From Bacteroidales bacterium (GTDB taxonomy: Bacteria; Bacteroidota; Bacteroidia; Bacteroidales; JAIORY01): a stretch of 37,549 nt of DNA. The notes under the pieces were generated by a model. It searched no databases. It saw nothing but the letters and a program-made list of their open reading frames with translations, and was not told the origin of the DNA. The translations under genes were made by a program, and so were the position numbers. Positions 2,968-36,640 of the stretch are shown in pieces; the stretch's first letter is position 1; every line of letters starts with the position of its first letter. Where the stretch lies: positions 1 to 37,549 of the forward strand of contig JAIORY010000231.1 of assembly GCA_021107915.1 (NCBI GenBank). The letters are read 5' to 3'.

Positions 2968-3246
<279 letters not shown>

Positions 3247-3410: not shown

Positions 3411-3923
<513 letters not shown>

Positions 3924-6745: not shown

Positions 6746-6756
6746 CAATTTGTGTC

Positions 6757-7131: not shown

Positions 7132-7147
7132 ATTCACCAACTTTATA

Positions 7148-8543: not shown

Positions 8544-8603
8544 TTTTTAATTTATGATTTACGATTTACGATTTATGATTTACGATTTTCAAATAGTCAA
8601 TTG

Positions 8604-10367: not shown

Positions 10368-10384
10368 ATATTTTTAATTTATTT

Positions 10385-10527: not shown

Positions 10528-10571
10528 TTTTTATAAGTTTACAATATGGATTAATTAGTTCACTTTAAGTG

Positions 10572-11444: not shown

Positions 11445-11498
11445 AGATTATTTTGATAAAAAAATCAGCTATTCTACTACTTCTTAACAATTTTGCAA

Positions 11499-11516
11499 CC
11501 CCGATAGCTATCGGGG
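11499..11516. repeat. 18-bp perfect palindrome
   Basis: The sequence ccccgatagctatcgggg is self-complementary and lies between the V-type E and DUF2764 genes. A second short inverted repeat (caaactc and gagtttg) follows at about 11538-11555. They could be an RNA-processing or attenuation structure within the operon. No U-tract follows on the minus strand. Confidence 0.6.
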
Positions 11517-11618
11517 AAAGCTGTTTATACATACGCACAAACTCTTATGAGTTTGGAAGTAGTAATGCGGTACAAAACAAAACTATAAATTTTGCAATTT
11601 TGTTCCGTACAAGTATCA

Positions 11619-12230: not shown

Positions 12231-12258
12231 GATAATTTCCTTTTTTAAAAAACGCTTG

Positions 12259-12266
12259 CAAAATTA
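12259..12266 (-). promoter_or_regulatory. candidate -7 box for the V-ATPase operon
   Basis: On the minus strand TAATTTTG matches the Bacteroidota sigma consensus TAnnTTTG and lies about 29 bases before the ntpE ATG, in the gap after the antiporter gene. No clear -33 TTG was found at ideal spacing. It suggests the V-type genes have their own promoter. Confidence 0.5.
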
Positions 12267-12315
12267 GTAAGTTTTTGCATTGTTTCTTTTATAATTGTTT
12301 CTTTTTTTTGATTTG

Positions 12316-13365: not shown

Positions 13366-13371
13366 AATTAT

Positions 13372-13426
13372 AATTTAAGATTTAAGAATTCAGATTTAAA
13401 ATTTAAAATCATAAATCTAAAATTTT
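13372..13426 (-). repeat. right copy of 55-bp inverted repeat bracketing the V-ATPase block
   Basis: Its reverse complement matches 3301-3355 at 54 of 55 positions. It lies between the antiporter start and the atpB stop. The 11-mer tttatagaccg at 13438-13448, just outside it, repeats 3369-3379 in direct orientation. Together the two copies enclose the antiporter and all seven V-type operon genes. Confidence 0.85.
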
Positions 13427-13455
13427 AACTTTCAGACTTTATAGACCGACTCTAA

Positions 13456-14601
13456 TCAATGATGTTCTTCTGTTGCCATTCCGATATAAAGTGCTGATAA
13501 TAATGTAAAAACATAAGCCTGAATAAGAGCAACAAGCAATTCGAGAAAACCCATGAAAATAGCAAAAGCCACAGATAATACCGAAACACCATATCCTAAT
13601 ACCGGATTTATATTTCCGAAAATAAAAATCAGGCTAATAAAACCCAAAACAATTATATGTCCGGCTGTAATATTAGCAAAAAGTCGCACCATTAATACAA
13701 AAGGTTTTGTAACTAATCCCATAATTTCAACGATAGGCATTAATGGAATAGGGATTTTTAACCACCATGGAACCCCCGGAGTATTAACAATATGTTTCCA
13801 GTAATTTCTGTTTCCGCTAACTGCTGTAATAATAAAAGTAAAAACAGCTAAAACCCCCGTTACGGCTATATTACCTGTAATATTTGCTCCTCCGGGAAAA
13901 AATGGAACTAATCCAAGTAAGTTATTTAGAAAGATGAAAAAAAACAGGGTGAGTAAATACGGCATAAATTTTTCGTATTTTTTTTCACCGATTGCCGGTT
14001 TTACAACATCATCCCTGATAAAAAGAATTATTGGTTCAAGTAATGATTGCAGTCCTTTTGGTGCTTTACCTTTTCTTTTGGTATATGTTCGGGCAATCGA
14101 AATAAACATCCAGCAAATGAGTACCATGCTGATTAATATCGCAAAAACATTTTTAGTGATTGATAGATCCAAAGGCAGGTTAGGATCAATAACTCCGGCT
14201 TCGTCAATACGAACAATTTTACCTTTATATTCTCCATCAGACATTAATTTGTATCCTTTGTATGAATCGTGTCCGTGATGAAATTTACTTGACCAAAAAG
14301 TTACTATCGTTCCATTATCAATTAAAATAATAGGTAAAGGTATTGAAACATGAGTATGTCCATAAGTTAAAATATGCCATTCATGCGAATCAACTATGTG
14401 ACTAATGATTTCTTTCCCAGCTTTAAATTCTGATTTTTCTACTTCTTCTTCCCAGCTTTCAGCATGTTCTTTGTTTTCGTTTACCGGAGAATTATTTGTA
14501 TGTTGTGCATTGATAAATTGGATCTGAAAAACACACAAAAGAAAAGCTAAAAATAAAATCCTGAAAACATTTATTTTATTATGTTTGATCGTACTTTTCA
14601 T
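13456..14601 (-). CDS. atpB: F-type ATP synthase, F0 subunit a
   Basis: The 381-aa product starts with a signal-like hydrophobic segment (about 10-32), followed by a histidine-rich exported domain of about 110 residues usual for Bacteroidota AtpB. The a-subunit membrane domain follows, with about five to six transmembrane helices. The essential channel arginine is R306 in LMVRLFANITAGH. The start is ATG at 14601. The next F-type gene, atpE, is over 10 kb downstream because the antiporter and V-type operon lie between. Identification is secure. Confidence 0.97.
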   Translation of the reverse strand: MKSTIKHNKINVFRILFLAFLLCVFQIQFINAQHTNNSPVNENKEHAESWEEEVEKSEFKAGKEIISHIVDSHEWHILTYGHTHVSIPLPIILIDNGTIVTFWSSKFHHGHDSYKGYKLMSDGEYKGKIVRIDEAGVIDPNLPLDLSITKNVFAILISMVLICWMFISIARTYTKRKGKAPKGLQSLLEPIILFIRDDVVKPAIGEKKYEKFMPYLLTLFFFIFLNNLLGLVPFFPGGANITGNIAVTGVLAVFTFIITAVSGNRNYWKHIVNTPGVPWWLKIPIPLMPIVEIMGLVTKPFVLMVRLFANITAGHIIVLGFISLIFIFGNINPVLGYGVSVLSVAFAIFMGFLELLVALIQAYVFTLLSALYIGMATEEHH

Positions 14602-14801
14602 TTACTTTAGAATATAATTTTTCAAAATGCAATTTTACAAAAAATTAATGAAATCAATTTCTTAATTCTGAAAAAATCAAAAAAAGAAATTGCAATTGAC
14701 AAAAAAAAATCTTATTTTCACAAAAAATATGTAACAACACTATTTTGACCAGCGTAAAACTATTTAATATCATAATTTTCAAAAAAGAAAGGGAGCATTT
14801 T

Positions 14802-15311
14802 ATGAAAAAATTTATTTTATTATTATTTACAGTATTCTTTATCGGACTTACCGGATGTAATGAGTGTGAAAAAAAAGAACCTGCAATTAATCTTGAAGAG
14901 GAAAAACTCCAAATTGAAAATATTCTCGATCAGTATGTTATTGCCAATGAAAATAAGGATTTAAGTATTATTGAAAAAATATGGGCAAATGAAGATGATA
15001 TTGTTTTAATTGGAACCGATAGCGATGAAAAGTTAATAGGTTGGAAGCAAATTAAAAATGCAATCCAGCATCAGTTCAAATCATTTGAAGATGTTTATAT
15101 TTCGGTTTCCGAGCAAATGATATTTGTAAATGAGACAGGAAATACAGCATGGTTTTCCGAAATACTCAGTTATAATTTTATTTATAATGGAGAGGCTATG
15201 AGTTTTGAAGGAATAAGATTTACCGGAGTTCTTGAAAAATCTACTGATTGGGAAATTGTTCAGGGACATTTATCAATTCCTGCAGAAGTTGATATTGAAA
15301 CTAATAAATAA
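14802..15311 (+). CDS. NTF2/SnoaL-like lipoprotein
   Basis: The 169-aa product starts at the ATG 14802, supported by GGGAG at 14791-14795 and by the lipoprotein signal ending LTGC (Cys at about residue 19). The rest fits an NTF2/SnoaL (DUF4440-like) fold: an N-terminal helix LQIENILDQYVIANENKDLS, the WANEDDIVLIGTDSDE strand region, and a C-terminal sheet with AWFSEILSYNF. Such proteins are exported small-molecule binding or enzyme-like domains of varied function, and none is assigned here. It runs opposite to the atp genes and ends at a strong terminator. Confidence 0.75.
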   Translation: MKKFILLLFTVFFIGLTGCNECEKKEPAINLEEEKLQIENILDQYVIANENKDLSIIEKIWANEDDIVLIGTDSDEKLIGWKQIKNAIQHQFKSFEDVYISVSEQMIFVNETGNTAWFSEILSYNFIYNGEAMSFEGIRFTGVLEKSTDWEIVQGHLSIPAEVDIETNK

Positions 15312-15347
15312 ATAAACAACCAAATTATTAACCAAAACCAAATTATC

Positions 15348-15378
15348 AGACCGGACGATTTTTTCGTTCGGTCTTTTT
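15348..15378 (+). terminator. rho-independent terminator after the NTF2-like gene
   Basis: The hairpin arms agaccggacga (15348-15358) and tcgttcggtct (about 15364-15374), with one mismatch and a short T-rich loop, are followed by a run of T. It is the clearest intrinsic terminator in the window. It separates the NTF2-like gene from the TPR gene. Confidence 0.8.
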
Positions 15379-15463
15379 AATGATCAAATGTTATTATTCA
15401 ATTTTGTTGGAGGATTTTTCTATAAAAAAATTAAAACTTAAATTTGCAAAAAAAATTAAAAAA

Positions 15464-16297
15464 ATGAAAGCAATATTTTATTTTATTATAGCAATTCTCG
15501 TATTAGTTTCATGTTCGTCGGGTGAAGATAAAAAAGAAAAATCGGGCAAGGAAATGATTTTAAATAAACAAATATCTCCTGAATCGAAATCAGTTAATAA
15601 TCAAGAGAAAACAATTGTGCCGGATTCCATTTCCGGATTCCAAAAAGAAGATTCTTTAGTAAAAAAAGAGCCACAAACCTCTGAACCAAAACTTACGTCA
15701 AGTAATAAAATGAAGATGATACCTACTAAGGAAAGATTAAATACTGATAAACTTGTCATGAAATATATCAGAAAAGGATTGTTTTATTACCAAAATAAGA
15801 ATTTTGAACAGGGTATTGAAGAATTTGAAATGGTTATAAAATTAAAACCCGGTGATGCAAAGGCATTTTATCATATAGGTATGGGAAAATATAGACTAAA
15901 CGATTATTATGGTGCTTTGGAAGCTTTTTCTGCATCTTCAGGCTTAAATCCTCAGGACACAGTTTCATTGATATATGCGGGTCTTTCGAAGTTTTATCTT
16001 GAAGATTATTATGGAGCAATCAGATATTATGATAAAGCAATTGATCAAAACCCGGATTATGAATATGCATATTTTAATCGTGGGATTGCTAATGGGAAAG
16101 TTGAAAATTATGAAAGAGCAATTACTGATTTTAACAGAGCAATAGAATTGAAATCGAATTATTTTGAAGCGTATAATAATCGCGGAAATGCATATTATTA
16201 TTTAAAGCAAAAAGAACATGCCTGTGCCGACTGGGAAAAAGCAAAAGAATTAGGTGCTAAGGGTATTGATGAAATTTTAGAAAAACTTTGTAAATAA
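15464..16297 (+). CDS. TPR-repeat lipoprotein
   Basis: The 277-aa product from the ATG at 15464 begins MKAIFYFIIAILVLVSC, a lipoprotein signal with Cys at residue 17. A low-complexity K/S/E/P linker (about 20-95) is followed by about five tetratricopeptide repeats (about 100-270), for example FNRGIANGKVENYERAITDF and AYNNRGNAYYYLKQKEHACA. It is probably an outer-membrane-anchored protein-interaction scaffold in the periplasm. An in-frame ATG at 15380 exists, but it falls at the T-tract of the preceding terminator and gives no signal peptide. No specific function can be read from the neighbours. Confidence 0.82.
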   Translation: MKAIFYFIIAILVLVSCSSGEDKKEKSGKEMILNKQISPESKSVNNQEKTIVPDSISGFQKEDSLVKKEPQTSEPKLTSSNKMKMIPTKERLNTDKLVMKYIRKGLFYYQNKNFEQGIEEFEMVIKLKPGDAKAFYHIGMGKYRLNDYYGALEAFSASSGLNPQDTVSLIYAGLSKFYLEDYYGAIRYYDKAIDQNPDYEYAYFNRGIANGKVENYERAITDFNRAIELKSNYFEAYNNRGNAYYYLKQKEHACADWEKAKELGAKGIDEILEKLCK

Positions 16298-16309
16298 ATT
16301 ACAAAGTTT
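16283..16309. terminator. possible bidirectional terminator hairpin
   Basis: Perfect 9-bp arms aaactttgt (16283-16291) and acaaagttt (16301-16309) span the stop codon of the TPR gene, between it and the convergent small gene at 16334. The stem is AT-rich and therefore weak. Confidence 0.4.
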
Positions 16310-16333
16310 ATCGAAAAACCTTAATATACTTGT

Positions 16334-16660
16334 TTAAGACAAAGTCCCTGAAATTGTAGCTAAAGCATAATCGCCTGATTTTGATGTCTCATTAATAATT
16401 TCCCCGTCGTAGAAAACAGAAAGTTCTATAATAGCATTTCTGTTATTGGCCTGAGCAGAGGCATAATAATAATCGCCGGGTTTTCCAACAAATGACTTTG
16501 TCCACCCGTTTTTTACTTCCGGTTTTTGGATTGTTTGTTTTTTAAAATCCTTAAATGTGATGTTGTAGCTATTAGCAGTTCCACCTAATACATATTTGAC
16601 AGTTCCAGGAAGATCCTTTTTCTTAAAAATTGAAGCGAGAAAACTAAATATATTTGCCAT
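16334..16660 (-). CDS. small MmpS-like beta-sandwich protein
   Basis: The 108-aa product has a short hydrophobic N-terminus (NIFSFLASIF) and then a beta-rich body, VKYVLGGTANSYNITFKDF, with a KSFVGKPGDYYYASAQ segment. That pattern (VTGTA.S..ITY... W.KSF..K.GD..YLSAQ) resembles small MmpS-like or secreted beta-sandwich proteins. The call is from pattern memory, with no known substrate. In Bacteroidota a hypothetical gene often lies between atpC and atpB, and this one occupies that place, but it is not an atp subunit. The start is ATG at 16660. Confidence 0.55.
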   Translation of the reverse strand: MANIFSFLASIFKKKDLPGTVKYVLGGTANSYNITFKDFKKQTIQKPEVKNGWTKSFVGKPGDYYYASAQANNRNAIIELSVFYDGEIINETSKSGDYALATISGTLS

Positions 16661-16932
16661 AATAATTTTTTTTCAAATATAAATAATTAATAATTAAAAA
16701 GCAAATAATCAGTATAAAAATAATAATGAAAATATAGGAAAGAATGAAAATAAGGGGAATAATAGAAATATGGAAAAAGAATGGAAATATATAAAACTTA
16801 TACCTTTATACCCCTATTTCCCTATAACTACAGGGTGTCCGTCCAAACGAATTCCTTTCAGTCATATGAATACCATTTTAAAAATTTATTGAGGTTTTTG
16901 ATCTATTAGAAAATTATATTTTTTTTATAAAT

Positions 16933-17169
16933 TTACTCTGCTAAAACAAGAACTTTATTATTTAATACTTCAACTACACCTCCACTGACTTCAAAGAATT
17001 GTGTTTTTTTATTTTTGTCAGAAACTTTTATTTTGCCTTTTTTCAAAACTGAGATCAAGGGAGCGTGATTATTCAAAATTTCAAAAAGCCCGTCAACTCC
17101 GGGTAATTGAACTAAATTTACCTCTCCTTCAAAAATTGTTTTGTCCGGTGTAATAATTTCGATTCGCAT
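16933..17169 (-). CDS. atpC: F-type ATP synthase, subunit epsilon (short form)
   Basis: The 78-aa product is the N-terminal beta-sandwich of epsilon only (MRIEIITPDKTIFEGEV... GLFEILNNHAPLISVLKKG... FEVSGGVVEVLNNKV). The C-terminal two-helix domain that inhibits ATP hydrolysis in other bacteria is absent. Short epsilon is common in Bacteroidota. It lies downstream of atpD on the same strand, with a 147-bp gap containing a large inverted repeat. The start is ATG at 17169. Confidence 0.95.
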   Translation of the reverse strand: MRIEIITPDKTIFEGEVNLVQLPGVDGLFEILNNHAPLISVLKKGKIKVSDKNKKTQFFEVSGGVVEVLNNKVLVLAE

Positions 17170-17219
17170 TTTTATAAAAAAATTAGGTTTTGTGTGAAAT
17201 ATAGTGGGTAATCAAATTT

Positions 17220-17281
17220 GCCACAGATTCACAGATTATAAAATTAATTTTTTTGTAATTAATAATCTGTGAATCTGTGGC
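17220..17281. repeat. perfect-arm inverted repeat between atpD and atpC
   Basis: The arms gccacagattcacagattat (17220-17239) and its complement (17262-17281) flank an AT-rich loop that itself pairs in part (aattaat...taattaat). It could fold into a long stem in the atpD-atpC transcript. No U-tract follows on the minus strand, so attenuation or RNA protection are both possible. The word cacagattcacagatt resembles other dispersed intergenic repeats of Bacteroidota. Confidence 0.8.
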
Positions 17282-17316
17282 TTTTTATTTTTTTCCCACA
17301 TCAAATCAAAAATAAT

Positions 17317-18885
<1,569 letters not shown>

Positions 18886-24130: not shown

Positions 24131-24843
24131 ATGGCTCAAAAGAAAGATATACCTGCCGAAGGTTTTTCGCAAATATTGCTTTACACCACACCCAATGGAA
24201 ATGTTAAAGTTGAAATATATTTGAAAAACGAAACGGTTTGGCTTACGCAACAAAAAATTGCCGATTTGTTTGGGGTTGACAGAAGTGTGGCGACCAAACA
24301 TTTAAAGAACATTTATGATGATAGTGAGCTTAGCAAAAAGTCAACATGTGCAATTTTTGCACAAGTTCAATTAGAGGGTATTCGGGAAGTTAAAAGGAAT
24401 ATAGAATTCTACAATTTAGATGCAATAATTTCTGTTGGTTACCGTGTAAACAGTCGGCAAGCTACACACTTTAGAATCTGGGCTACCGAAAGGCTGAAAG
24501 AATATATCATCAAAGGTTTTACCATGGATGATGAGCGGTTGAAAAACCCAAACAATATTTTTGGTAAAGATTATTTTGAAGAACAGCTTGCCCGAATACG
24601 CGATATACGCAGCAGCGAAAGGCGATTTTATCAGAAAATTACAGATATATACTCACAGTGTAGTGTCGACTACGATATAAACGACCAGATTACCAAAGAC
24701 TTTTTTGCTACGGTTCAAAACAAATTGCATTGGCAATTACCGGACAAACAGCAGCAGAAATAGAACTTGAAAAATACCGTATTATCCAAGACCGTATATT
24801 AGAATCGGATTTTGATAAAGAGATAAAAAAACTGCAAGGATGA
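24131..24843 (+). pseudogene. rhuM: rhuM-like gene, frameshifted with internal deletion
   Basis: Residues 1-195 match the RhuM/Fic-associated 'virulence protein' family: a winged-helix-like start (VEIYLKNETVWLTQQKIADL FGVDRSVATKHL in two blocks), YNLDAIISVGYRVNS, and FRIWATERLKEYI. After VQNKLH the frame is lost. Skipping two bases restores AITGQTAAEIELEKYRIIQD and an ending SDFDKEIKKLQG at the TGA 24841-24843. Family members have roughly 100 further residues between the AAEI and EKYRIIQD regions, so the middle of the C-terminal part is also deleted. It is probably non-functional. Confidence 0.8.
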
Positions 24844-24917
24844 AATAGGAGTACAATCTTGCCGGCGAGCAGTAAATAATAATAGATAAACCAATAATCA
24901 TTCAAATAGATTACATT

Positions 24918-25435
24918 ATGAATAATGCTAAACTAAAAATATTTCAAGAACAAAGTGTAAGAACACACTGGGACGATAAACAAGAAAAATGGTTTTTTTC
25001 TATTGTTGATGTTATTGGAATTTTAACCGGACAAATTAACCATCAAGGAGCAAGAAACTATTGGAAAGTATTAAAAAAGAGACTTTTGAAAGAAGGAAAT
25101 GAAACGGTTACAAATTGTAACCGTTTGAAAATGCTTGCAGCTGATGGCAAAATGCGAATGACTGATGTAGCAGATACAGAGCAGTTGTTACGGCTAATTC
25201 AATCTGTTCCATCGCCCAAAGCAGAGCCTTTTAAAAGATGGTTGGCAAAGCCTCAACAACAGAAATTGCCCGAAATAAAAATGCTCAGGGGTTTTTCGAA
25301 AACAAAAATGCTGCAAAACAAGGTGGAAGCGTAGCAGGCAAAGCAAGAAAAGACCTTGAGAAACGCAGCGGTAAAAAAGTAATCAGTAAACAAAATTATC
25401 ATCAGTTGGGCGAAGGTAACTATAAAGAAGAATAA
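24918..25435 (+). pseudogene. BRO-N / DinD-like gene with internal deletion and frameshift
   Basis: The first 110 residues are a BRO-N (antirepressor-type) domain: WFFSIVDVIGILTG, GARNYWKVLKKRL, LLRLIQSVPSPKAEPFKRWLAK. At about 25240 the sequence jumps into another frame, ASTTEIARNKNAQGF..., and continues with GKARKDLEKRSGKKVISKQNY, the C-terminal part of DinD-like proteins. The central region (ending in GEASTTEIA in intact members) is missing and the two halves are out of frame. N- and C-termini are otherwise well kept, so the loss looks recent. Confidence 0.8.
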
Positions 25436-25939: not shown

Positions 25940-27361
25940 ATGGAAACAAAAATTAAAACAATAAAAAAGGCAACAATATACTTTAACTATTCATTCATGC
26001 CTAGCTCTAATGACTTCACGTTAAAAGATGATGACATTGAAAAGCTTTACAAAGCATTAGAAAATGAAGATAAACTAAAGGATAGAATTAATGACAAATA
26101 TAATTTTGGCAAACCAAAGGAGAGAATAGGCATATCTTCTTTTAATTCATTGGAGCACAAAAATATTGGTTACCTTCAATTACCGGAAATGTTAGTTAAA
26201 ATTGATTCAATTAATTTAACAATTGAACCATTGTTTCGTTTTTTTCCTAATGGAAGTACCTTGACATTCAAAGTTGAAACCCAGGATAGTGAAATTGATC
26301 AATATATAATCCATAAGGTATTACATATGGTAAGCCAGGAAAGAAACGAAAAAGCAGATGTTACTTTTGTTTTTTCCAAAGAGATAGATAAAGCAAGCAA
26401 ACATTTTTACAAAGACTTTTTTAATATTGATACTAAAGAAGAAGAAAAGGAAATAGTAGTCTATCACAAAGAGAAAGAATTAGATATTAATTATACTCCG
26501 GAAATAAAATTATCACATGACTTCTTTACTGAAGAAAACCAAAATATCACCCTATTTCAATTGTTCAAAGGACTTGTAGAAAAATATATTCTAGTGGCAA
26601 GTAAAGAAGAGAAACTAAATGAAAAAGAGAAAAAGGATAAAAAAGATGTATTATTCAAATTGAAATGCAAGGAATACCTTAATACTAATGAGGAGGAGCC
26701 AAGAACTCCATGGGTAATTACTGTTTTAGATGTAGATGATGAATTAAATGAAATCCTTTGTTCCGGGGGTTCTAATAACGAGAGAACTAATGCCATATTA
26801 GAAAAGTCAAAGCTGATAGCTCCAATTCTATATCGTTCAGTTTCGGGTTCAGACTTTGAGCTAGAGCCATCCTATCCTTTTTTACCTAAAAGATTAAATT
26901 TCTTCAATCTTAATCTGGATTCAAGGCTTTATGTCGACATCTCAAGAAGATCAATTCTTTGTATAAAAACCAATGAACAAAAATATCCTGCGTATTATTT
27001 TATCCCGGTATTGTTAGATATTTCTGAAATGACATTCTCAAGATGGCAATCCCTATTAATTATTAATAAAATTATTGATGAGGCATTAAAAAATTTTACT
27101 GAAAAATCGCTTTCTGCTGGAGATCGTGTTAAAAAAATCATGAATCTTTTAAATAAATTTTCAGCATGTATTGAGGATACTTCAAACTATTTTATTGGTG
27201 GAGATGCTCTTCGAGAAATACATGATAAACTTATAGATAACTTTAAAGTGAATGACTTAATGAATATTACTTTAAGAAAAATAGATATGCTTGAAAGAAC
27301 CTATAAATATCAACTTGAACAAGCCTGGACTGAGCCTTATAAAGTAAGAAATAATGAGTGA
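25940..27361 (+). CDS. unrecognised 473-aa protein paired with a TIR protein
   Basis: There is no signal peptide or clear transmembrane helix. The N-terminal part (1-160) is mixed alpha/beta with repeated short hydrophobic strands (KKATIYFNYSFM, LFRFFPNGSTLTFKVE, ADVTFVFSKE). A lysine-rich stretch lies near 205-225, and an NRxxLDxxxxVDxSRRSI-like segment (about 320-340) follows. The C-terminal part (about 375-470) is helical. I cannot assign a family. Its TGA overlaps the ATG of the TIR-domain gene by 8 nt, so the two are translationally coupled and probably act together. It could be a sensor or regulator for the TIR effector. It is the first gene of a plus-strand run extending to 31415. Confidence 0.8.
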   Translation: METKIKTIKKATIYFNYSFMPSSNDFTLKDDDIEKLYKALENEDKLKDRINDKYNFGKPKERIGISSFNSLEHKNIGYLQLPEMLVKIDSINLTIEPLFRFFPNGSTLTFKVETQDSEIDQYIIHKVLHMVSQERNEKADVTFVFSKEIDKASKHFYKDFFNIDTKEEEKEIVVYHKEKELDINYTPEIKLSHDFFTEENQNITLFQLFKGLVEKYILVASKEEKLNEKEKKDKKDVLFKLKCKEYLNTNEEEPRTPWVITVLDVDDELNEILCSGGSNNERTNAILEKSKLIAPILYRSVSGSDFELEPSYPFLPKRLNFFNLNLDSRLYVDISRRSILCIKTNEQKYPAYYFIPVLLDISEMTFSRWQSLLIINKIIDEALKNFTEKSLSAGDRVKKIMNLLNKFSACIEDTSNYFIGGDALREIHDKLIDNFKVNDLMNITLRKIDMLERTYKYQLEQAWTEPYKVRNNE

Positions 27362-28883
27362 TAGGAAACATTATAGTGAAGAAAGTGATAGGCTGACGAA
27401 AGTATTAGATTCCCGAGCTAGAAAAATTAGAAGATCAGAAAGTTTAATAGTTCTAAGTGAAGAATTTCCTGAGACTAAAAATATTATAGAAAAGATTCTC
27501 GAATACTATTTCTTTGAGTCTAATATGTTTGAAGAATTAGCGACTTCCATTACTTATCTCAAATTAAATAATGAAATCGATAGCCAAAAATTTAAATTTT
27601 GGATACACATAATTGATATTGCAGATGAAATTAGTTGGGAAACAAAACAATCATTTGGTGAATTAATTTATAAGACTTTTGATATAGGAGAAGAGTTTTT
27701 TAATAGACTTAATCGAAATCTTGTCGAAATAGAAAAGGCTCATAATAAGTTTTTTGAAAATATCAAAAAGAACAAGCAGTTATTACCGAAGGATACTAAA
27801 ACATTATTAGATAAATTTCTTGTTAAAAATAACATTTTGGACAATAATGTGAAAGTTGAAAGTGAATCAGTAAAAAATGATAGCATTGAATTGGAAACAA
27901 AAATCAACAATTCGAATAAAAATGTAAATGAAAAAGGCCCTATAAAAGCTTTTATCAGCTATGCCCATGAAGACGAAGATTTTAGAATAAATCTTAGAAA
28001 ACATTTAAAGAGTCTTGAACGCAGAAATCTGATCGAAGTATGGGATGATCGTGAAATTGTTGCTTCAGATGAGTGGAGAGAGGAAATTAAAAAAGCTTTA
28101 AGAAATTGCCAACTTGCTTTGTTATTGATTAGTATTGATTTCATCAATTCCGATTTCATCAATGATCAAGAATTAAATGAATTTTTAAGAAAACGAAAAG
28201 ATGAGGGACTAAAGATTGTTCCGATTATTATTCGTGAGTGTGATTGGAAGGAGGAGATATTTGCTAACCTTCAAGCTACTCCAAAAGACGGAGAATCAAT
28301 TAGTTCATATCAGAATAGAGATTTAGCATGGGTAGAAGTTGTGAATGAAATAAAGAGGGTACTTAAAAATATTTCAGAAACCACATCATCGATTGAAAAT
28401 ACATTAAATGATTCATTTAGTAAAACTAATATAGAGCATAATAAAAGTGTAATTCCTATGGAAACAGAAAAAGCACATACGAAAGCAAATTTGCAGGCAA
28501 TTGAAGTTAGATTATTAGCATCTTTCAATACGATAAAAGTTTTAGATGCAAAATTTAGAAGAAAAGAAATAACACCTGAATTCTATTTTGATAAAAGAAA
28601 AGCATATGTTGAAGATAACTTTTCTGATTTCAATGAAATTATAAAAATATTGAAAGAAACAGGAGCTTCAGATTTTGCAGATGTTTTTGAGAGAACTATT
28701 AATTTAGATACAACTAATAAAGAACAAGAAGTTGCTATAAAGGAGGAATTAATACTTGAAACAGAAAAGGCTGAGGACAAAGGATGGATAAAAAACTTAA
28801 AAGAAAAAGTGAGTCAACATAAAGGTGATATAATTGATGTTGCAATAAAAACAGCTATTGCAATTGGAACAGCATTGCTATAA
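27354..28883 (+). CDS. TIR-domain protein with flanking unknown domains
   Basis: The 509-aa product has three parts. Residues 1-160 are a helical unknown domain resembling effector-associated regions. Residues 197-338 are a TIR domain of the bacterial TIR_2 type: KAFISYAHEDEDF, EVWDDREIVASDEWREEI, LLLISIDFINSDF and NDQEL, where E273 is in the position of the catalytic Glu of TIR NADases. After a linker, a conserved-looking helical region (about 380-460, LLASFNTIKVLDAKFRRKEI) is followed by a hydrophobic tail DIIDVAIKTAIAIGTALL that could touch membrane. NAD-consuming or cyclic-nucleotide-producing activity in anti-phage defence is plausible from the family but unproven. The gene overlaps the upstream partner by 8 nt and precedes an ABC importer by 19 bp. 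Confidence 0.85.
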   Translation: MSDRKHYSEESDRLTKVLDSRARKIRRSESLIVLSEEFPETKNIIEKILEYYFFESNMFEELATSITYLKLNNEIDSQKFKFWIHIIDIADEISWETKQSFGELIYKTFDIGEEFFNRLNRNLVEIEKAHNKFFENIKKNKQLLPKDTKTLLDKFLVKNNILDNNVKVESESVKNDSIELETKINNSNKNVNEKGPIKAFISYAHEDEDFRINLRKHLKSLERRNLIEVWDDREIVASDEWREEIKKALRNCQLALLLISIDFINSDFINDQELNEFLRKRKDEGLKIVPIIIRECDWKEEIFANLQATPKDGESISSYQNRDLAWVEVVNEIKRVLKNISETTSSIENTLNDSFSKTNIEHNKSVIPMETEKAHTKANLQAIEVRLLASFNTIKVLDAKFRRKEITPEFYFDKRKAYVEDNFSDFNEIIKILKETGASDFADVFERTINLDTTNKEQEVAIKEELILETEKAEDKGWIKNLKEKVSQHKGDIIDVAIKTAIAIGTALL

Positions 28884-28902
28884 ACATTTAAAAATATTTA
28901 TC

Positions 28903-29901
28903 ATGAAAACAAGATTATTAATTTTCGCTATCATACCAGTTCTCTTTGTATTAATTGGTTGTAATAGCAACAAAACGAAAAATACGGAAAAAGAAATTCA
29001 GGTTACTTGGGGTGGTCCTAAAAACATTTCAATGTTACCAATTATAGCAGAAAAAAAGGGATTTTTTAAAGAGGAAGGCTTGAACATTGAAACTAAGTAT
29101 TTACAAACCGGCAAAATTGCAATGGATGCACTTTTAAGTAAAGACCTTGATTTTGCGGTAATGGTAGAAACAAATGTTGCCTTTATAGAATACCAGAAAG
29201 GAGCAGATATAGAAGTTATTTGTTCTATTGAGGAAAAATATGATGATGCTATTGTTGCAAGGAAAGATAAAGGCATTAATGAACCTAAAGACTTGGAAGG
29301 TAAAACCGTTGGGATTTTAATCGGGACAACATCTCATGTTTTTGCTGATAGATTTGTAAATTATTACAATCTTGATGCAAGTAAAATCAACTTTATAAAC
29401 TTAGCTCCTCCAGCCATCCAGGCGGGATTATTAACAGGGCAAATAGATGCAGGAAGTGTTTGGCAACCATTCAGGTATAATGTTGAAAAACAACTTGGTG
29501 AAGATGTTATTCAATTCAATGCTAAGGATATTTACAAGGCGTATGGGATAATATCCATCAGGAATCAATTTGGGGAAGAACATCCTGAAACTGTTAAAAA
29601 ATTCCTGGCAGCCTTAATCAAAGCTGAAAACTATGTAAAAACCAATCAAGCTAAATCAATCAAAATTCTAGCGAAAGAATTAGCTATGCAGGAAGAAGTA
29701 TTAAGCGCAATTTGGAGTGAATACATATTGAATGTTAAGCTAGATGCGGAATTATTGACATTAATTAAAGAAGAGGGCGAGTGGATCCATAGCAGCCAAA
29801 AAGGTTTTGAAAATAAACAAGTTCCTTCATACGAAAATGTGCTGAATCCAACTTTTCTTTCAGAACTTAAAAAAGAGAACGCAGAGGAACTCTCAAAATA
29901 A
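28903..29901 (+). CDS. ABC importer substrate-binding lipoprotein (SsuA/NMT1-like)
   Basis: The 332-aa product from the ATG at 28903 has a lipoprotein signal MKTRLLIFAIIPVLFVLIGC (Cys 20). The body is a type-2 periplasmic binding protein of the SsuA/TauA/NMT1-THI5 group: KGFFKEEGLNIETKYLQTGK, DFAVMVETNVAF, DLEGKTVGILIGTTSHVF and LLTGQIDAGSVWQPF. Substrates in this group include sulfonates, nitrate, riboflavin and pyrimidine precursors, and none can be chosen here. It starts 19 bp after the TIR gene and is followed 12 bp later by its permease. Confidence 0.88.
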   Translation: MKTRLLIFAIIPVLFVLIGCNSNKTKNTEKEIQVTWGGPKNISMLPIIAEKKGFFKEEGLNIETKYLQTGKIAMDALLSKDLDFAVMVETNVAFIEYQKGADIEVICSIEEKYDDAIVARKDKGINEPKDLEGKTVGILIGTTSHVFADRFVNYYNLDASKINFINLAPPAIQAGLLTGQIDAGSVWQPFRYNVEKQLGEDVIQFNAKDIYKAYGIISIRNQFGEEHPETVKKFLAALIKAENYVKTNQAKSIKILAKELAMQEEVLSAIWSEYILNVKLDAELLTLIKEEGEWIHSSQKGFENKQVPSYENVLNPTFLSELKKENAEELSK

Positions 29902-29913
29902 TTATCAATTTGA

Positions 29914-30660
29914 ATGAAGAAACTCCTTTTTGTAATAGGGCCAATTGCATTATTAATTCTTTGGTGGATATTAACGAAGTTTGGATTCGCCAATTCTTTT
30001 TTACTTCCGTCACCTGAAGATACTTTTTCAAGATTATTTGGATTATTTTCGTCAGGAGAGGTGTTTAATGATATAAGGTTAACTTTTTATCGGTGGTCAA
30101 TTGGATATCTTTTAGGCTGTGTTGTTGGCATTCCTTTAGGTATTTTAATGGGTTATTCTGAAAAAGTATATAAAAGTTGTGAATTTCTGATTGAATTTTT
30201 CAGGTCCCTACCTGTTACAGCCATGTTCCCTCTATTTTTACTAATGTTTGGAATTGGAGACAGCTCAAAAATTGCCATGACTTTTACAGCAACAGTCTTT
30301 ATTATAATAATAAATAGTGCTTATGGAGTAACACAAACAAAAAAGTCTCGAATTAAAGCTGCCAAAACATTCGGAGCTACAAATTTTCAGATTTTCACTA
30401 ATGTTGTGTTTTATGAATCCCTGCCTCATACCTTGATTGGAATGAGAACAACACTAAGCCTTTCATTGATTGTTGTAATTGTAAGCGAAATGTTTATTGG
30501 TACACAGTTTGGACTTGGGCAACGAATTTATGATGCCTACACCAGAAATTCTGTTGATGAGCTTTATGCTGTGATAGTATTATTGGGAATAATCGGCTAT
30601 TTTTCGAATAAGTTATTTATGTACATGGAAACTAAAATTGCATTTTGGACAGGAAAGTAG
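29914..30660 (+). CDS. ABC importer permease (SsuC/TauC-like)
   Basis: The 248-aa product has about six transmembrane helices and the binding-protein-dependent permease EAA-type loop at about residues 145-165 (AKTFGATNFQIFTNVVFYES). The N-terminus LLPSPEDTFSRLF is typical of the sulfonate/nitrate/taurine branch. The start is ATG at 29914, 12 bp after the binding protein. The end overlaps the start of the ATPase gene by 16 bp. Confidence 0.9.
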   Translation: MKKLLFVIGPIALLILWWILTKFGFANSFLLPSPEDTFSRLFGLFSSGEVFNDIRLTFYRWSIGYLLGCVVGIPLGILMGYSEKVYKSCEFLIEFFRSLPVTAMFPLFLLMFGIGDSSKIAMTFTATVFIIIINSAYGVTQTKKSRIKAAKTFGATNFQIFTNVVFYESLPHTLIGMRTTLSLSLIVVIVSEMFIGTQFGLGQRIYDAYTRNSVDELYAVIVLLGIIGYFSNKLFMYMETKIAFWTGK

Positions 30661-31415
30661 TACATATAAAAGTAGATAAAATATCAAAATCATTTAAAAA
30701 TGATGAAGGTAGAATAGAAGTGCTTAAACATGTAAGCCTGGAAATTTATAAGGGTGAATTTTTAACATTCTTTGGTCCGAATGGCTGTGGAAAGTCGACA
30801 TTAGTAAACATTCTTGCAGGAATTGAAGAGGCTGGAGATGGAGAAATAACCTTTCCGGAAACCAACGGGAAACCGAAAATTGGGTTTGTCTTTCAAAACT
30901 ACCGGGATAGTTTAATGCCCTGGCTAAATGTTGAAAAAAATATCTGTTTCCCATTAAAATTAAAGGGAATAACTAAGAGTGAGCAAAAGGAAAGGTTGAA
31001 AACATTAATATCAGAATTTGAAATTAATATTGACCTGAAATCTAAGGTTTATAATTTATCAGGAGGTCAGGCTCAAATGGTTTCAATCTTACGCGGCTTA
31101 ATTGTTAATCCTGAAATATTGATCATGGATGAACCTTTTTCTGCTCTTGACTATCAGACAAATTTAATGTTGTATGAAGAATTATTAAAAATTTGGAGAA
31201 AGCTTAAGATTACAGTCATTTTAATTTCTCATGAAATTGACGAAGCTATATATCTCGGTGACAGAGTTGCTTTTTTAAGTAAAAAACCCGCTTCAATATT
31301 TAAAGTTTTGAATTCTGATTTACCAAGACCAAGGAAATTGGAAGATATGGGATCGCAAGAGTTTGCTGAATTAAAGAAAAAAGCATTAGAAATATTCAGA
31401 AATACAGCGACGTAA
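30645..31415 (+). CDS. ABC importer ATPase (SsuB/TauB-like)
   Basis: The 256-aa product has Walker A GPNGCGKST (about 44-52), Q-loop FVFQNYRDSLMPW, signature LSGGQ (about 138-142), Walker B ILIMDEPFSALD, and the H-loop in LISHEIDEA. The most N-terminal start available is TTG at 30645, inside the permease gene, and no ATG precedes the first beta-strand. It completes the importer. The 3' end lies 9 bp from the 3' end of the convergent arginase-fold gene, and no terminator is visible between them. Confidence 0.92.
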   Translation: MDRKVVHIKVDKISKSFKNDEGRIEVLKHVSLEIYKGEFLTFFGPNGCGKSTLVNILAGIEEAGDGEITFPETNGKPKIGFVFQNYRDSLMPWLNVEKNICFPLKLKGITKSEQKERLKTLISEFEINIDLKSKVYNLSGGQAQMVSILRGLIVNPEILIMDEPFSALDYQTNLMLYEELLKIWRKLKITVILISHEIDEAIYLGDRVAFLSKKPASIFKVLNSDLPRPRKLEDMGSQEFAELKKKALEIFRNTAT

Positions 31416-31424
31416 TTAAATTTA

Positions 31425-32318
31425 TTATTTAGTTAGATTGGTGTATGAAACAATTTCCATTATAAGATTATTAATCCAATCAACACAATTGTCATTATCT
31501 TTTGATGGTATATAGTTAGCAATGCTAATTCCTGCAATTTCAAAATCTTCTAATAACTGGAGAGTGATATCTGATATCTCTTGTTTTAACAATCCATTAG
31601 AATGTGGAGCATAAACCGGAGGATCTTCCGAAGAGTCAATAACATCCAAATCATAGTGAATGAAAATTGATTTTATCCTATTTTGAATTAACTTTTTTGA
31701 TAATTCAGAAATCTTCTGATCTACATTTTCCTTTAAATTATCACCAGAGTATAATATTATCTTTTGTTTGTCTATAAGTTTTTTCTCTCCTTCATCAAGG
31801 TTTCGCTGCCCTAACATTATAACATTGGATGGTTTAATAAATTCCCTCATTTTATTCAATTCCAGAATTTCCGGGTGACCAAATCCAAGTATATGGGCTA
31901 ATCCCATTCCGTAAAAACAACCACTTGGACTGGTTTCAGGTGTATTAATATCAGCATGAGTATCAAACCAAATTATTCCAACATCATGATTATTAGCTAA
32001 TACGCCATATACAGTACCAATTGTTGATGAATCATCGCCCATTAACACCAATGGAATATTACCAGATTTTACTGTAGTTTGTACTTCTTCCTGTATTACT
32101 CTATTTAATTGTAATATCTCAGGTAAATTCTTAGAATTTGCATATTCACCCTGTGAATGCTCTGGTTTTGGTACTGGTATTTCTATTCTAATAACATTAT
32201 TACTAATACCTTCACCCACCTTTTTTAGTACCGATGATAAAACAACCGGTCCTTTTTCCATTCCACAATTAATATCGGGAGCACCGAGACTGCTTGAAAC
32301 TTCAATTATTTGAAACAT
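31425..32318 (-). CDS. arginase/ureohydrolase-fold protein with altered active site
   Basis: The 297-aa product keeps the ureohydrolase order of motifs but with changes. The usual GGDHS is MGDDS (93-97), so the first Mn ligand His is D96. DTHAD (D119, H121, D123) is intact. The usual SGNxHG is SGCFYG (132-137), replacing the proton-shuttle His by Tyr. DLDVID (D223, D225, D228) is intact. The usual E in the late EVNP-type motif is A267 in IANYIP. Metal binding is plausible, but arginine or agmatine hydrolysis with the standard mechanism is doubtful. It may act on another guanidino, amidine or hydroxy-guanidine compound. It is the last gene of a three-gene operon, 3 bp after the SelO-like gene. 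Confidence 0.85.
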   Translation of the reverse strand: MFQIIEVSSSLGAPDINCGMEKGPVVLSSVLKKVGEGISNNVIRIEIPVPKPEHSQGEYANSKNLPEILQLNRVIQEEVQTTVKSGNIPLVLMGDDSSTIGTVYGVLANNHDVGIIWFDTHADINTPETSPSGCFYGMGLAHILGFGHPEILELNKMREFIKPSNVIMLGQRNLDEGEKKLIDKQKIILYSGDNLKENVDQKISELSKKLIQNRIKSIFIHYDLDVIDSSEDPPVYAPHSNGLLKQEISDITLQLLEDFEIAGISIANYIPSKDNDNCVDWINNLIMEIVSYTNLTK

Positions 32319-32321
32319 ATC

Positions 32322-33446
32322 TTAATGAGGTTTATAAATTGGTTCTCTTTTTGGTAGTTCTTTTATTCTCTCTACTGACAAAACAATTTCGCCAACAGTT
32401 CTTTTAAATATTGGAGTAGAAAATATCCAATTCTCAATATTTATTAATTTATCAACATCCCATCCTCGCTCTGATACCTTTTGTAAAAATACTCTTTTGT
32501 AAGCTTGAAAAATCGTACTATTGTTTAAATAAAACTGAACGGCTTCTTCTTTCGTATCAACTATATGCACAAATGGCAAACTACTTTTAACAACTTCTAC
32601 ATAAGACTGAAGACAAAATCTTTTTAAAAAATCATCGTCCGGTTTTTCTGGTATTCCAACAACTTTAAATGTATCAAAGTCGCATAAAAATAAATCCAGA
32701 TTGCCTTGTTCATCAATATTAATAACATCATTACCAATATTACTGTTAAGCAATCCCCTGAAACCTCCATTAAAATTCATATTTACTAATAGCAAAGCTT
32801 TAGTATAGGTATAAAATGAATTATTAATTCCTGTTAAATTCACTTCCCTTCCCAAGCCATGTCTTAAATCGAATAAATCCGATTTTACCTTTAAATTTAG
32901 CAGACTATCTATTGTTTGATTTTCATATTCAAATCTTGATTCAATTCTTGTTTCTGATACTGTTTTTTCAACAATGCAATATCCTTCTCCAATCGGAAAT
33001 ACAGCAACAGGAATGAGATTAGTTTGTAAATTGTACTTCTTGAAAAAACCATAACCCAGTATTTCTCTAATTACCTGATCTATGGTAAGAATACCATATG
33101 GTATCGTAGTTACTTTAACATTCTCCTCACCAAAAAACATACTCTCGCTTGGGAATTTTCTTTTTTCATGATATGGATTACACCCTTTTAATTTTAGCAT
33201 TTTATCAGATATAAAAGCTGATCTTTCGCCATGTCTATAAGCATATTGAACACCCTTTTCCGACTTTAACCACTTGGCTCTTGATAAAGGAACCTTAAAA
33301 TCATCAATCGAATTTTTGTATAGTTTGTTATCTGAAAGAATTTTTATTTCCCGATTTGATAATTGAACATTATTAATATGCTTACTAACAAAATCGGTAA
33401 TTGAATAAATATTACTTTCAAACTCATATAGCTTTATCTTTTCCAT
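32322..33446 (-). CDS. divergent SelO/YdiU-like (pseudokinase-fold) protein
   Basis: The 374-aa product shows, in order, pieces that resemble the SelO protein AMPylator: LKLKGCNPY (84-92; compare LKGAGxTPYSR), VIREIL (125-130; compare IRExL), a Leu-Ile-Pro strand LIPVAVFPI, GGFRGLLNSN (227-236; compare GxxHGVMNTDN), CDFDTF (255-260; compare the metal-binding DYGPF), and a helical tail with FCLQSYVEV. The length is well below the roughly 480-600 of SelO proteins, and the Asp of NTDN is not aligned. A kinase-like fold that transfers AMP or phosphate is the inference. It is encoded 2 bp after the carbamoyltransferase, so a partnership with it is likely. The start is ATG at 33446. Confidence 0.5.
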   Translation of the reverse strand: MEKIKLYEFESNIYSITDFVSKHINNVQLSNREIKILSDNKLYKNSIDDFKVPLSRAKWLKSEKGVQYAYRHGERSAFISDKMLKLKGCNPYHEKRKFPSESMFFGEENVKVTTIPYGILTIDQVIREILGYGFFKKYNLQTNLIPVAVFPIGEGYCIVEKTVSETRIESRFEYENQTIDSLLNLKVKSDLFDLRHGLGREVNLTGINNSFYTYTKALLLVNMNFNGGFRGLLNSNIGNDVINIDEQGNLDLFLCDFDTFKVVGIPEKPDDDFLKRFCLQSYVEVVKSSLPFVHIVDTKEEAVQFYLNNSTIFQAYKRVFLQKVSERGWDVDKLINIENWIFSTPIFKRTVGEIVLSVERIKELPKREPIYKPH

Positions 33447-33448
33447 AT

Positions 33449-35263
33449 CTATCGCAGGTGTTCAGAAACTGTCTGAAAACTTAAATTCATTCTGGATAAA
33501 AGTTCCAGGTCATGCTCGTTTTTTCTGGCAATCAAATAATTATTCATGACCAAAAAGTCAATTTTTCCTTTGCCAGATGAAAGGAAATTTTCAAGTGCAT
33601 GTTGTGGACTGTGAACAATAGGTTGTCTGATATTAAAAGATGTATTTACTAATATTGGAATTTTGGTTAATTTATGAAACTCTTTAATGAGATTATAAAA
33701 TGGTTTGTTCGAATCTTCTGAAACGACCTGCACTCTACCAGTATTATCATAATGCGTTACTGCCGGGATTTCCCCAATCTTTTCCGGTTTTATTTTATAA
33801 GAAAAAAGCATCCATTTATCAGATTCGGCACCACCTTTAGGTCTGATAAACCAATTATCCACCTCACTTTCCAAAACAGAAGGAGCTAATGGTCTAAACC
33901 ATTTACGTCCTTTAATATCCTGGCTTAATCTCTTTAATATATCACTTCGTCTGGGATCAGATAGAATACTTCTATTACCTAAAGCTCTTGGGCCAAATTC
34001 CATTCTACCCTGATACCAGGCTATTATTGCTCCTTTTGTTAACAGATCAGCGGTTATTGTGTCAATGTTTTCAATCTGAATAAACTGTATTTCATCACAA
34101 TTTGCCAGATACTCACTAATTTGATTATTATCAAATTGCGAACCCAGATATGGTGTAAATAGTTGATGATTAGTATTGCCAACAATATGTTTATCTACAT
34201 AAAGAGCAGCTCCTAATGCAGTTCCCATATCATTAGCTGCTGGTTGAATAAAAATATTTTTAAACTTACTATTTTCGAGAATGTATGTATTGGTAGTACA
34301 ATTAAGAGTAACTCCTCCCGCCATACATAAATTATCTGATCCAGTTAAATCGTGTAGCTTATTTGCCCAAATCAATACTATTTCGTTTGTTAATTTTTGC
34401 ATTGCTGCGGCAAAATCCATGTGATCCTGAGAAAACTCTTCATTTTCTTTTCTTGCTTTAAACCCAAATAATTTTTCATATTCTTCATGTGTTTCATATC
34501 TGAATTGAAATATCTCATCATTAATTTGGAAGTCACCTTCATTGTTGTAGTAAACAAATGACCGAAATTCTTTATAATAATTATCTGGATTTCCATAAGA
34601 TGCAAGAGCCATTAACTTTCCAGCTCCATATTCGCCCATTCCATTTATCAGTGCACTAAGAAATCTAGATGCTTTAGTCCATAGAAAACCAAGCGAATTG
34701 GGATAACCACCTTTTTCTTCAAATATTTGTAATAACCCCTTCCCTCCTTTTGCAAACATTCTGCTATAGTATTCTCCAATTCCATCAATGGTTAAAACAG
34801 CAGAATCCTCAAATGGTGAAACAAAATATGCACTTGCAGCATGACAAACATGATGAGGTATCCAATGCCATTTATTTCTTAAATCAACTCCATATTTACT
34901 TTCTAATATTTCTGGTATTGAGTTAACTAATTTATAATATTTGCTTTCTCCGGAAAGGCTCCCCCAATCTCCTTCAATAACATTACCATTTTGATCAATG
35001 TTTCTGATAAGTCTTTGAATAGGATCAAATGAAAATCCAATGTGATTAATTTCTTTAAAAGTAATATTAGCAAACTTCAAACATTCATTAATTGCTAGAA
35101 ATGGTAATTGATGTGGATTGGTAATTAAAGCTGATTTTCCATGCCTAACCCTGTTTAGTCTTTCTTCTTCAATTGCAAATAATACTTCACCATTTTTTAA
35201 TAAACAGGCTGCCGGTTCATGATAAACAGAATTAATTCCTAATATAAAAGTATCTTTACTCAT
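33449..35263 (-). CDS. NodU/CmcH-type carbamoyltransferase
   Basis: The 604-aa product has both domains of the family. The N-terminal Kae1/YrdC-like acceptor domain begins FILGINSVYHEPAACLLKNG, with AIEEERLNRVRHGK and the metal-binding HHVCHAASAYFVSPF followed by LTIDGIGEYYS. The C-terminal carbamoyltransferase domain has GRMEFGPRALGNRSILSDPR, then WFRPLAPSVL. Such enzymes transfer carbamoyl from carbamoyl phosphate, via carbamoyl-AMP, to a hydroxyl of a sugar or natural product. The acceptor is unknown. It is first in a tight operon with a SelO-like and an arginase-fold gene. The ATG at 35263 lies downstream of a TATTTTTG box and an inverted repeat. Confidence 0.9.
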   Translation of the reverse strand: MSKDTFILGINSVYHEPAACLLKNGEVLFAIEEERLNRVRHGKSALITNPHQLPFLAINECLKFANITFKEINHIGFSFDPIQRLIRNIDQNGNVIEGDWGSLSGESKYYKLVNSIPEILESKYGVDLRNKWHWIPHHVCHAASAYFVSPFEDSAVLTIDGIGEYYSRMFAKGGKGLLQIFEEKGGYPNSLGFLWTKASRFLSALINGMGEYGAGKLMALASYGNPDNYYKEFRSFVYYNNEGDFQINDEIFQFRYETHEEYEKLFGFKARKENEEFSQDHMDFAAAMQKLTNEIVLIWANKLHDLTGSDNLCMAGGVTLNCTTNTYILENSKFKNIFIQPAANDMGTALGAALYVDKHIVGNTNHQLFTPYLGSQFDNNQISEYLANCDEIQFIQIENIDTITADLLTKGAIIAWYQGRMEFGPRALGNRSILSDPRRSDILKRLSQDIKGRKWFRPLAPSVLESEVDNWFIRPKGGAESDKWMLFSYKIKPEKIGEIPAVTHYDNTGRVQVVSEDSNKPFYNLIKEFHKLTKIPILVNTSFNIRQPIVHSPQHALENFLSSGKGKIDFLVMNNYLIARKNEHDLELLSRMNLSFQTVSEHLR

Positions 35264-35312: not shown

Positions 35313-35320
35313 ATAAAGTA

Positions 35321-35339
35321 ATGTAGAATTATACTACAT
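35321..35339. promoter_or_regulatory. operator-like inverted repeat upstream of the carbamoyltransferase operon
   Basis: The sequence atgtagaattatactacat has 6-bp arms ATGTAG and CTACAT around a 7-bp AT spacer. It lies just upstream of the predicted -7 box of the operon, where a regulator could bind. The word TGTAGTATAA also occurs after the promoter boxes at 35591 and 36291. Confidence 0.35.
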
Positions 35340-35422
35340 TTTTGAAATTAATTGAGCTATACTCACACAGCTAACCACCTTTCTAATCCCCCAAAAACCA
35401 AACCCCAACAAAGTTTTTTCCA

Positions 35423-36316: not shown

Positions 36317-36640
36317 GTGAAAACAAATATTAAAATTCTAAAAAAACTAAAGAAATCTCTTATTAACAAGTTTGGAGAAAACATAAAAGAAGTGATTTTA
36401 TTTGGTTCCCATGTAACAGGCAAGGCTCACGAAAATTCCGATTATGATGTATTGGTTATATTAAACAATGATTATAACTGGAAATATAAGAGAGAAATCT
36501 TACACGTTTGTTATGATATTGAATTAGAACACGATATTTTTATTGATATTAAAATTATTTCTATTAATGAGTTAAATCATTCTATTAAAGGGCAGCATCC
36601 TTTATACGAAGAAGCTTTAAATAAAGGAATACTAATATGA
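36317..36640 (+). CDS. MNT-type minimal nucleotidyltransferase (antitoxin-type)
   Basis: The 107-aa product starts at GTG 36317. The nucleotidyltransferase signature is VILFGSHVTGKAHENSDYDV (about 30-49), with GS and the DxD pair (D47 and D49), and a third carboxylate is likely in HDIFIDIKI. In MntA/HepT systems the nucleotidyltransferase AMPylates and silences the HEPN toxin. Its TGA overlaps the ATG of a HEPN frame (ATGA), but that frame is damaged. It therefore appears to be an antitoxin left without its toxin. Confidence 0.85.
   Translation: MKTNIKILKKLKKSLINKFGENIKEVILFGSHVTGKAHENSDYDVLVILNNDYNWKYKREILHVCYDIELEHDIFIDIKIISINELNHSIKGQHPLYEEALNKGILI

What the first reader, a model, noticed from the sequence alone, without database searches (positions are those of the whole stretch)
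31425..35263. Three-gene operon of carbamoyltransferase, SelO-like protein and altered arginase-fold protein
Gaps of 2 and 3 bp show a single operon. One enzyme adds carbamoyl groups via an adenylate, one resembles an AMP-transferring pseudokinase, and one has a ureohydrolase fold. Together they could build or tailor a nitrogen-rich small molecule or peptide (carbamoyl or guanidino chemistry). It converges with an importer gene set only 9 bp away. I know of no described pathway with this trio.
Basis: partly seen in the sequence, partly recalled or inferred. Interest (0 to 1): 0.68.

Follow-up and report, generated by a model that had tools for sequence, protein, structure and literature searches.

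The report
Carbamoyl-transfer gene trio, altered arginase
Three adjacent bacterial genes (a carbamoyl-adding enzyme, an arginase-like protein with rebuilt working parts, and a protein of no known family) sit together in two very distantly related bacteria, so they probably form a small undescribed pathway that modifies an arginine-like amino acid.

Summary
The operon is real: three intact minus-strand genes with 2- and 3-bp gaps, converging 9 bp from an ABC importer. Gene 1 is a two-domain NodU/CmcH-type carbamoyltransferase (CT). Gene 3 is an arginase-fold protein. The linkage is conserved: the only relative of gene 2 found in an 84,980-genome collection (36% identity, a reduced 0.9-Mb genome) lies beside a CT and an arginase-fold protein, the same trio. 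Both arginases share H101D, H141Y and E277N, seen in none of 33 ordinary arginases checked, yet keep the other five metal ligands and the free alpha-amino-acid pocket. The trio's CTs group (100/98) with a Streptomyces clavuligerus CT encoded beside an arginine-beta-hydroxylase-family enzyme. Best reading: a tailoring cassette in which an arginine-type amino acid, probably hydroxylated, is carbamoylated and processed by a repurposed arginase; the orphan's step is unknown. Substrate, product and chemistry are inferred. The cassette is rare and sporadic.

The parts
33449..35263 (-). Carbamoyltransferase (604 aa), first gene of the operon; NodU/CmcH type with N-terminal Kae1-like and C-terminal YrdC-like domains
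   Evidence: Pfam PF02543 + PF16861; GdmN/TobZ alignments; 45% identical to the CT of L002
32322..33446 (-). Orphan protein (374 aa), second gene; no known family
   Evidence: No match in Pfam, NCBIfam, PHROGs, PADLOC; one relative, L002:9935-11140, about 35% identical
31425..32318 (-). Arginase-fold protein (297 aa), third gene; D96, Y136, N268 at the H101, H141, E277 positions
   Evidence: PF00491, PDB arginases, residue table, 33% identical to L002:8897-9793
35320..35340 (.). Palindrome AATGTAGAATTATACTACATT about 57 bp upstream of the operon's first codon; candidate operator, unproven
   Evidence: 22 of 100 shuffles give a match within 2 mismatches; only exact copy in the genome
28858..31415 (+). 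Convergent SsuA/TauA-type ABC importer (binding protein, permease, ATPase); association by proximity only
   Evidence: Pfam NMT1, BPD_transp_1, ABC_tran; SsuA_fam 140.8 bits, below the 163.5 cut-off

Best explanation
A rare, probably horizontally spread tailoring cassette acting on a free arginine-type alpha-amino acid. Step 1 (activity class well supported by family): the carbamoyltransferase uses carbamoyl phosphate and ATP to form carbamoyl-adenylate and passes the carbamoyl group to an acceptor, probably a hydroxyl of a hydroxylated arginine/ornithine-type amino acid (acceptor inferred). Step 2 (inferred): the arginase-fold protein holds the substrate's alpha-amino and carboxylate groups as arginase does, but with D for the metal ligand H101, Y for the gateway H141 and neutral N for E277, which grips the guanidinium in arginase. 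It therefore probably acts on a different end group, such as a carbamoyl/ureido group or a modified guanidine, by hydrolysis or elimination. Step 3 (unknown): the orphan protein does an unassigned, perhaps ATP-using, step.
For: Trio linked in both genomes where the orphan was found, although the orphan was the only query. The D/Y/N triple is shared by two arginases only 33% identical and absent from 33 ordinary ones, while five metal ligands and the amino-acid pocket residues N130, S137, D183, E186 are kept; E277 and N130/E186 roles from PMC9475637. CT clade 100/98 with an S. clavuligerus CT followed 53 bp later by an arginine-beta-hydroxylase-family enzyme (GntD model 414 bits, cut-off 345). 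A second class of altered arginase lies in an operon with a methyltransferase and a sulfotransferase-like protein (L094).
Against: Only two copies of the trio. No hydroxylase or carrier is encoded in the trio itself. The CT family mostly acts on sugars and polyketides, so the acceptor may not be an amino acid. Loss of H101, or of H141 and E277, is tolerated by enzymes that still cleave arginine (zmARG; OspR). The window CT sits on a long branch.
Confidence: 0.42

Rival explanations
1. Gene 3 is still a ureohydrolase that releases urea from an arginine derivative, leaving an ornithine-type product; the changed residues only tune it. The trio is then a carbamoylated-ornithine pathway or an arginine-derivative degradation route.
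For: zmARG with Cys at the H101 position is a Mn-dependent arginase (PMC6988801). OspR with Ile and Ser at H141 and E277 cleaves arginine in peptides (PMC10028609). Amino-acid pocket kept. The search of the window's class found no second arginase-family match in its own genome.
Against: All three guanidinium-side positions are changed together and identically in two very diverged proteins; no paper read here reports an arginase with that triple.
Confidence: 0.25
2. The CT carbamoylates a sugar or other non-amino-acid scaffold made elsewhere in the genome (its commonest role), and the arginase-fold protein is a metal-dependent amidase/deacylase acting on that scaffold, in the manner of the related deacetylases.
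For: Many CT relatives lie in glycosyltransferase clusters and the solved relatives act on antibiotics. Loss of the metal-A histidine could leave mainly the B site.
Against: The amino-acid pocket is kept. The nearest CT clade is linked to an arginine-hydroxylase-type enzyme and to an NRPS, not to sugar genes, although a glycosyltransferase follows the S. clavuligerus hydroxylase.
Confidence: 0.15
3. The middle protein is a SelO-type pseudokinase that AMPylates the substrate or one of the partner enzymes.
For: By eye, the order of conserved blocks (KxKG, RExL, SExR, NxxxND, DFD) resembles SelO and other kinase-like folds; one hhalign run picked the same RE...S..R register.
Against: PF02696 does not match; hhalign probability 0.1%, and 106 of 200 column shuffles scored as high; no significant fold match from a low-confidence model.
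Confidence: 0.1

Closest known systems
NodU/CmcH-type carbamoyltransferases (GdmN, TobZ, decarbamoylnovobiocin carbamoyltransferase)
   Same: Both domains and the aligned PHHxxHA, DGxGE and FGPRALGxRS motifs
   Different: Own clade with CTs next to an arginine-hydroxylase-type enzyme or an NRPS; far below the NodU cut-off
Arginase (RocF) and other ureohydrolases
   Same: Fold, five of six metal ligands, alpha-amino-acid pocket
   Different: D, Y, N instead of H101, H141, E277; 140.7 bits against the arginase cut-off of 227.6
Peptide arginase OspR (landornamide)
   Same: Also lost H141 and E277 (PMC10028609)
   Different: OspR lacks the amino-acid pocket and works on a peptide; the trio protein keeps the pocket
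Zymomonas mobilis arginase zmARG
   Same: Also lost the H101 ligand (Cys) and has a HxDxD motif like the trio's
   Different: Single enzyme with arginase activity; not described in such an operon
SelO pseudokinases
   Same: Vague order of conserved blocks only
   Different: No statistical similarity
Guadinomine pathway (carbamoyltransferase proposed in cyclic guanidine formation; from memory, not found in the paper library)
   Same: Would be a precedent for a carbamate serving as a leaving group near a guanidine
   Different: No arginase-fold protein or orphan known to me there; untested

Membership tests
NodU/CmcH carbamoyltransferase | Carbam_trans_N plus Carbam_trans_C domains, full length | tested here: met
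   178 and 203 bits, cut-offs 24 and 27
NodU/CmcH carbamoyltransferase | Conserved catalytic motifs aligned to GdmN | tested here: met
   PHHxxHA, DGxGE, FGPRALGxRS
NodU/CmcH carbamoyltransferase | Carbamoyl transfer activity and acceptor | not testable with these tools
   Needs an assay
NodU (nodulation) | NodU equivalog score | tested here: not met
   146.9 bits, cut-off 1000
Arginase superfamily (ureohydrolase fold) | PF00491 and fold match | tested here: met
   110.9 bits, cut-off 22; Foldseek 1e-10
Arginase (RocF) | Equivalog score | tested here: not met
   140.7 bits, cut-off 227.6
Arginase (RocF) | H101, H141, E277 | tested here: not met
   D, Y, N in both trio proteins; H, H, E in 33 ordinary ones
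Arginase (RocF) | Other metal ligands and alpha-amino-acid pocket | tested here: met
   D124, H126, D128, D232, D234, N130, S137, D183, E186 kept
Peptide arginase (OspR type) | Amino-acid pocket missing, peptide substrate | tested here: not met
   Pocket residues present; comparison from PMC10028609
SelO pseudokinase | PF02696 match | tested here: not met
   No match at E up to 1 nor in the whole genome
SelO pseudokinase | Profile-profile similarity above shuffled controls | tested here: not met
   106 of 200 shuffles score as high
Kinase-like fold in general | Two-lobe ATP-binding fold | tested here: inconclusive
   Model from two sequences has pLDDT 41; kinases only among non-significant fold matches

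The most novel reading that the evidence does not exclude
The trio makes an unknown carbamoyl- or guanidine-derived amino acid (for example a cyclic guanidine or a carbamoylated non-protein amino acid) in which the carbamate installed by the CT is a leaving or activating group, the arginase fold has been turned from hydrolase to cyclase or lyase, and the orphan is a new ATP-using enzyme family.
Probability: 0.12. Interest if true: 0.85.

Novelty: new variant of a known kind. Interest (0 to 1): 0.55.

Why it matters
A protein family with no known relatives is tied by conserved linkage to two well-understood enzyme folds, one carrying three coordinated active-site changes. That gives a short, testable route to a new amino-acid-derived metabolite and to how the arginase fold changes its chemistry, in uncultured bacteria that include one with a very small genome, where such pathways are unexpected.

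Tried and rejected
SelO membership: Pfam, whole-genome Pfam, and hhalign with a shuffle control, rejected. PDB hits to the orphan: multicystatin at 4e-5 in the single-sequence search vanished with the two-sequence profile, rejected as chance. Structure-based naming of the orphan: pLDDT 41, no usable fold match. Mobile-element origin: no orphan relative in viral contigs, phages or plasmids. Defence system: no PADLOC match for the trio. Closest CTs from the same order: none has the arginase or orphan beside it. RNA element: none in Rfam. Literature: no paper held links these families. Arginase tree: branches too long to place the trio's arginases, not used.

Full report
1. The observation. Three ORFs on the minus strand (33449-35263, 32322-33446, 31425-32318; 604, 374 and 297 aa) are complete, start with ATG and are separated by 2 and 3 bp. 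The last converges, with a 9-bp gap, on an ABC importer (28858-31415, plus strand). The window lies in a 3.27-Mb, 461-contig genome; the genes are not at a contig end.

2. Gene 1 is a standard-architecture carbamoyltransferase (CT): Carbam_trans_N and Carbam_trans_C domains, best solved relative GdmN, with the PHHxxHA, DGxGE and FGPRALGxRS motifs aligned. It is not NodU itself (147 bits, cut-off 1000).

3. Gene 3 has the arginase fold (PF00491; PDB arginases to 1e-39; Foldseek 1e-10). The alignment to Bacillus caldovelox arginase runs at a constant +3 offset across the active site, so residues can be placed: D96, Y136 and N268 stand at the H101, H141 and E277 positions of human arginase I. In that enzyme H101 is one of the residues around the two manganese ions, H141 stacks on the guanidine and has been given a catalytic role, E277 holds the guanidine in place, and N130 and E186 contact the carboxylate and ammonium groups (PMC9475637). 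The GGDHS histidine as a metal ligand is stated in PMC6988801; S137 and D183 as pocket residues are from memory. Gene 3 keeps D124, H126, D128, D232, D234, N130, S137, D183 and E186.

4. Gene 2 matches nothing in Pfam, NCBIfam, PHROGs or PADLOC. No PDB match is credible: a multicystatin hit at 4e-5 in the single-sequence search disappears with the two-sequence profile. The SelO label was tested directly and fails. PF02696 finds nothing in this genome although it rings in four control genomes, and hhalign against six SelO proteins gives 0.1% probability, with 106 of 200 column-shuffled profiles scoring as high. Structure prediction from two sequences is unusable (pLDDT 41; no significant fold match). 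The blocks conserved between its two members (KLKGCxP, RE, KTxSExRxES, GGFRGxLNSNxGND, CDFDTFK) come in an order that would suit a kinase-like ATP site; this is a reading by eye, not a result.

5. Conserved linkage. A scan of 84,980 species genomes with peptides of the orphan alone found one relative (36% identity, L002). Around it, on one strand, lie a methyltransferase, a CT, an arginase-fold protein and the orphan (L002:6431-7168, 7183-8895, 8897-9793, 9935-11140). The order differs (CT-arginase-orphan there, CT-orphan-arginase here), yet all three proteins are homologous along their length: 45, 33 and 35% identity. L002's genome is about 0.9 Mb and its sampled phylum mates are mostly 0.5-1.4 Mb, so it is probably a reduced-genome, Patescibacteria-like lineage; the tools gave no name.

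6. Rarity. The orphan is absent from 395 other genomes of the window's phylum and 392 others of its order (a smaller order sample, overlaps), and around L002 from 286 phylum and 85 order genomes. It is absent from the viral, phage and plasmid collections as searched. The genome scan needed exact peptides, so diverged copies were probably missed and 'two genomes' is a lower bound. Sporadic presence in distant lineages suggests horizontal transfer (inference).

7. The coordinated change. All 29 other arginase-family loci retrieved from the window's class and four from a bacillus, a clostridium, a haloarchaeon and a reduced-genome bacterium have H, H and E at the three positions; both trio proteins have D, Y and N. 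Because the two trio proteins are only 33% identical, the shared substitutions look selected. They lie where arginase handles the guanidinium, while the part that holds the amino acid is untouched. Precedents show such losses need not abolish ureohydrolysis: zmARG has Cys at the H101 position and is Mn-dependent, and OspR has Ile and Ser at H141 and E277, though it acts on peptides and lacks the amino-acid pocket. A changed substrate is favoured, but plain ureohydrolysis remains possible. Other atypical arginases exist with other residues at these positions (L004, L005, L094).

8. The CT's relatives. In a tree of 35 CTs the trio's two CTs form a 100/98 clade with one from Mycetohabitans rhizoxinica and one from Streptomyces clavuligerus (the window CT is on a long branch, so its place within the clade is unsure). 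The S. clavuligerus CT is followed 53 bp later by a member of the arginine-beta-hydroxylase family (GntD model over its cut-off; VioC model and PDB arginine beta-hydroxylases). The Mycetohabitans CT is followed by an MTS-type methyltransferase and an NRPS. The closest CTs from the window's own order have no arginase or orphan neighbour.

9. A further altered arginase. In another small genome (L094) an arginase-fold protein with C, G and A at the three positions lies in a tight operon with an MTS-type methyltransferase and a sulfotransferase-like protein; L002 also has an MTS-type methyltransferase 14 bp before its CT. This hints at a wider class of repurposed arginases in small operons beside group-transfer enzymes.

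10. Verdict. Shown: the operon, two enzyme families, the orphan status of the third protein, conserved linkage in two distant genomes, and three coordinated substitutions. Inferred: the substrate class (arginine-type alpha-amino acid), the order of steps, and the chemistry of genes 2 and 3. Importer involvement rests on proximity only.

Noticed in passing
window 23-18855 (-): V/A-type ATPase genes (K 3411-3881, I 4098-5888, D 5885-6499, B 7194-8543, A 8604-10367) lie between F-type ATP synthase genes (atpA, delta, b at 23-2687; a subunit at 13456-14601; beta at 17317-18855), so one ATPase set is nested inside the other.
   Followed up: partly
window 25940-28883 (+): A 473-aa protein without Pfam match overlapping a TIR-domain protein similar to ThsB of Thoeris (PADLOC 1.4e-36); a possible defence pair.
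   Followed up: partly
window 24131-25334 (+): RhuM-family and Bro-N-domain ORFs that look like remnants of mobile elements.
   Followed up: no
window 36317-36640 (+): Small nucleotidyltransferase (MNT-like; PADLOC candidate PDC-S09).
   Followed up: no
L094:8452-11883 (-): Tight four-gene operon in a small genome: unassigned 235-aa protein, MTS-type methyltransferase, sulfotransferase-like protein, and an arginase-fold protein with C, G, A at the H101, H141, E277 positions.
   Followed up: partly
L037:11884-14768 (+), Streptomyces clavuligerus plasmid pCLA1: Unannotated pair of carbamoyltransferase and GntD/VioC-type hydroxylase, followed by a glycosyltransferase; possibly a small unassigned biosynthetic cluster.
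   Followed up: partly
L005:5947-6797, Hymenobacter volaticus plasmid: Arginase-family gene split over two ORFs, with D and S at the H141 and E277 positions: another atypical arginase.
   Followed up: no
L082:128-2023 (contig 16 of the window's own genome): A second, ordinary carbamoyltransferase that groups with those of related genomes, unlike the trio's CT.
   Followed up: partly
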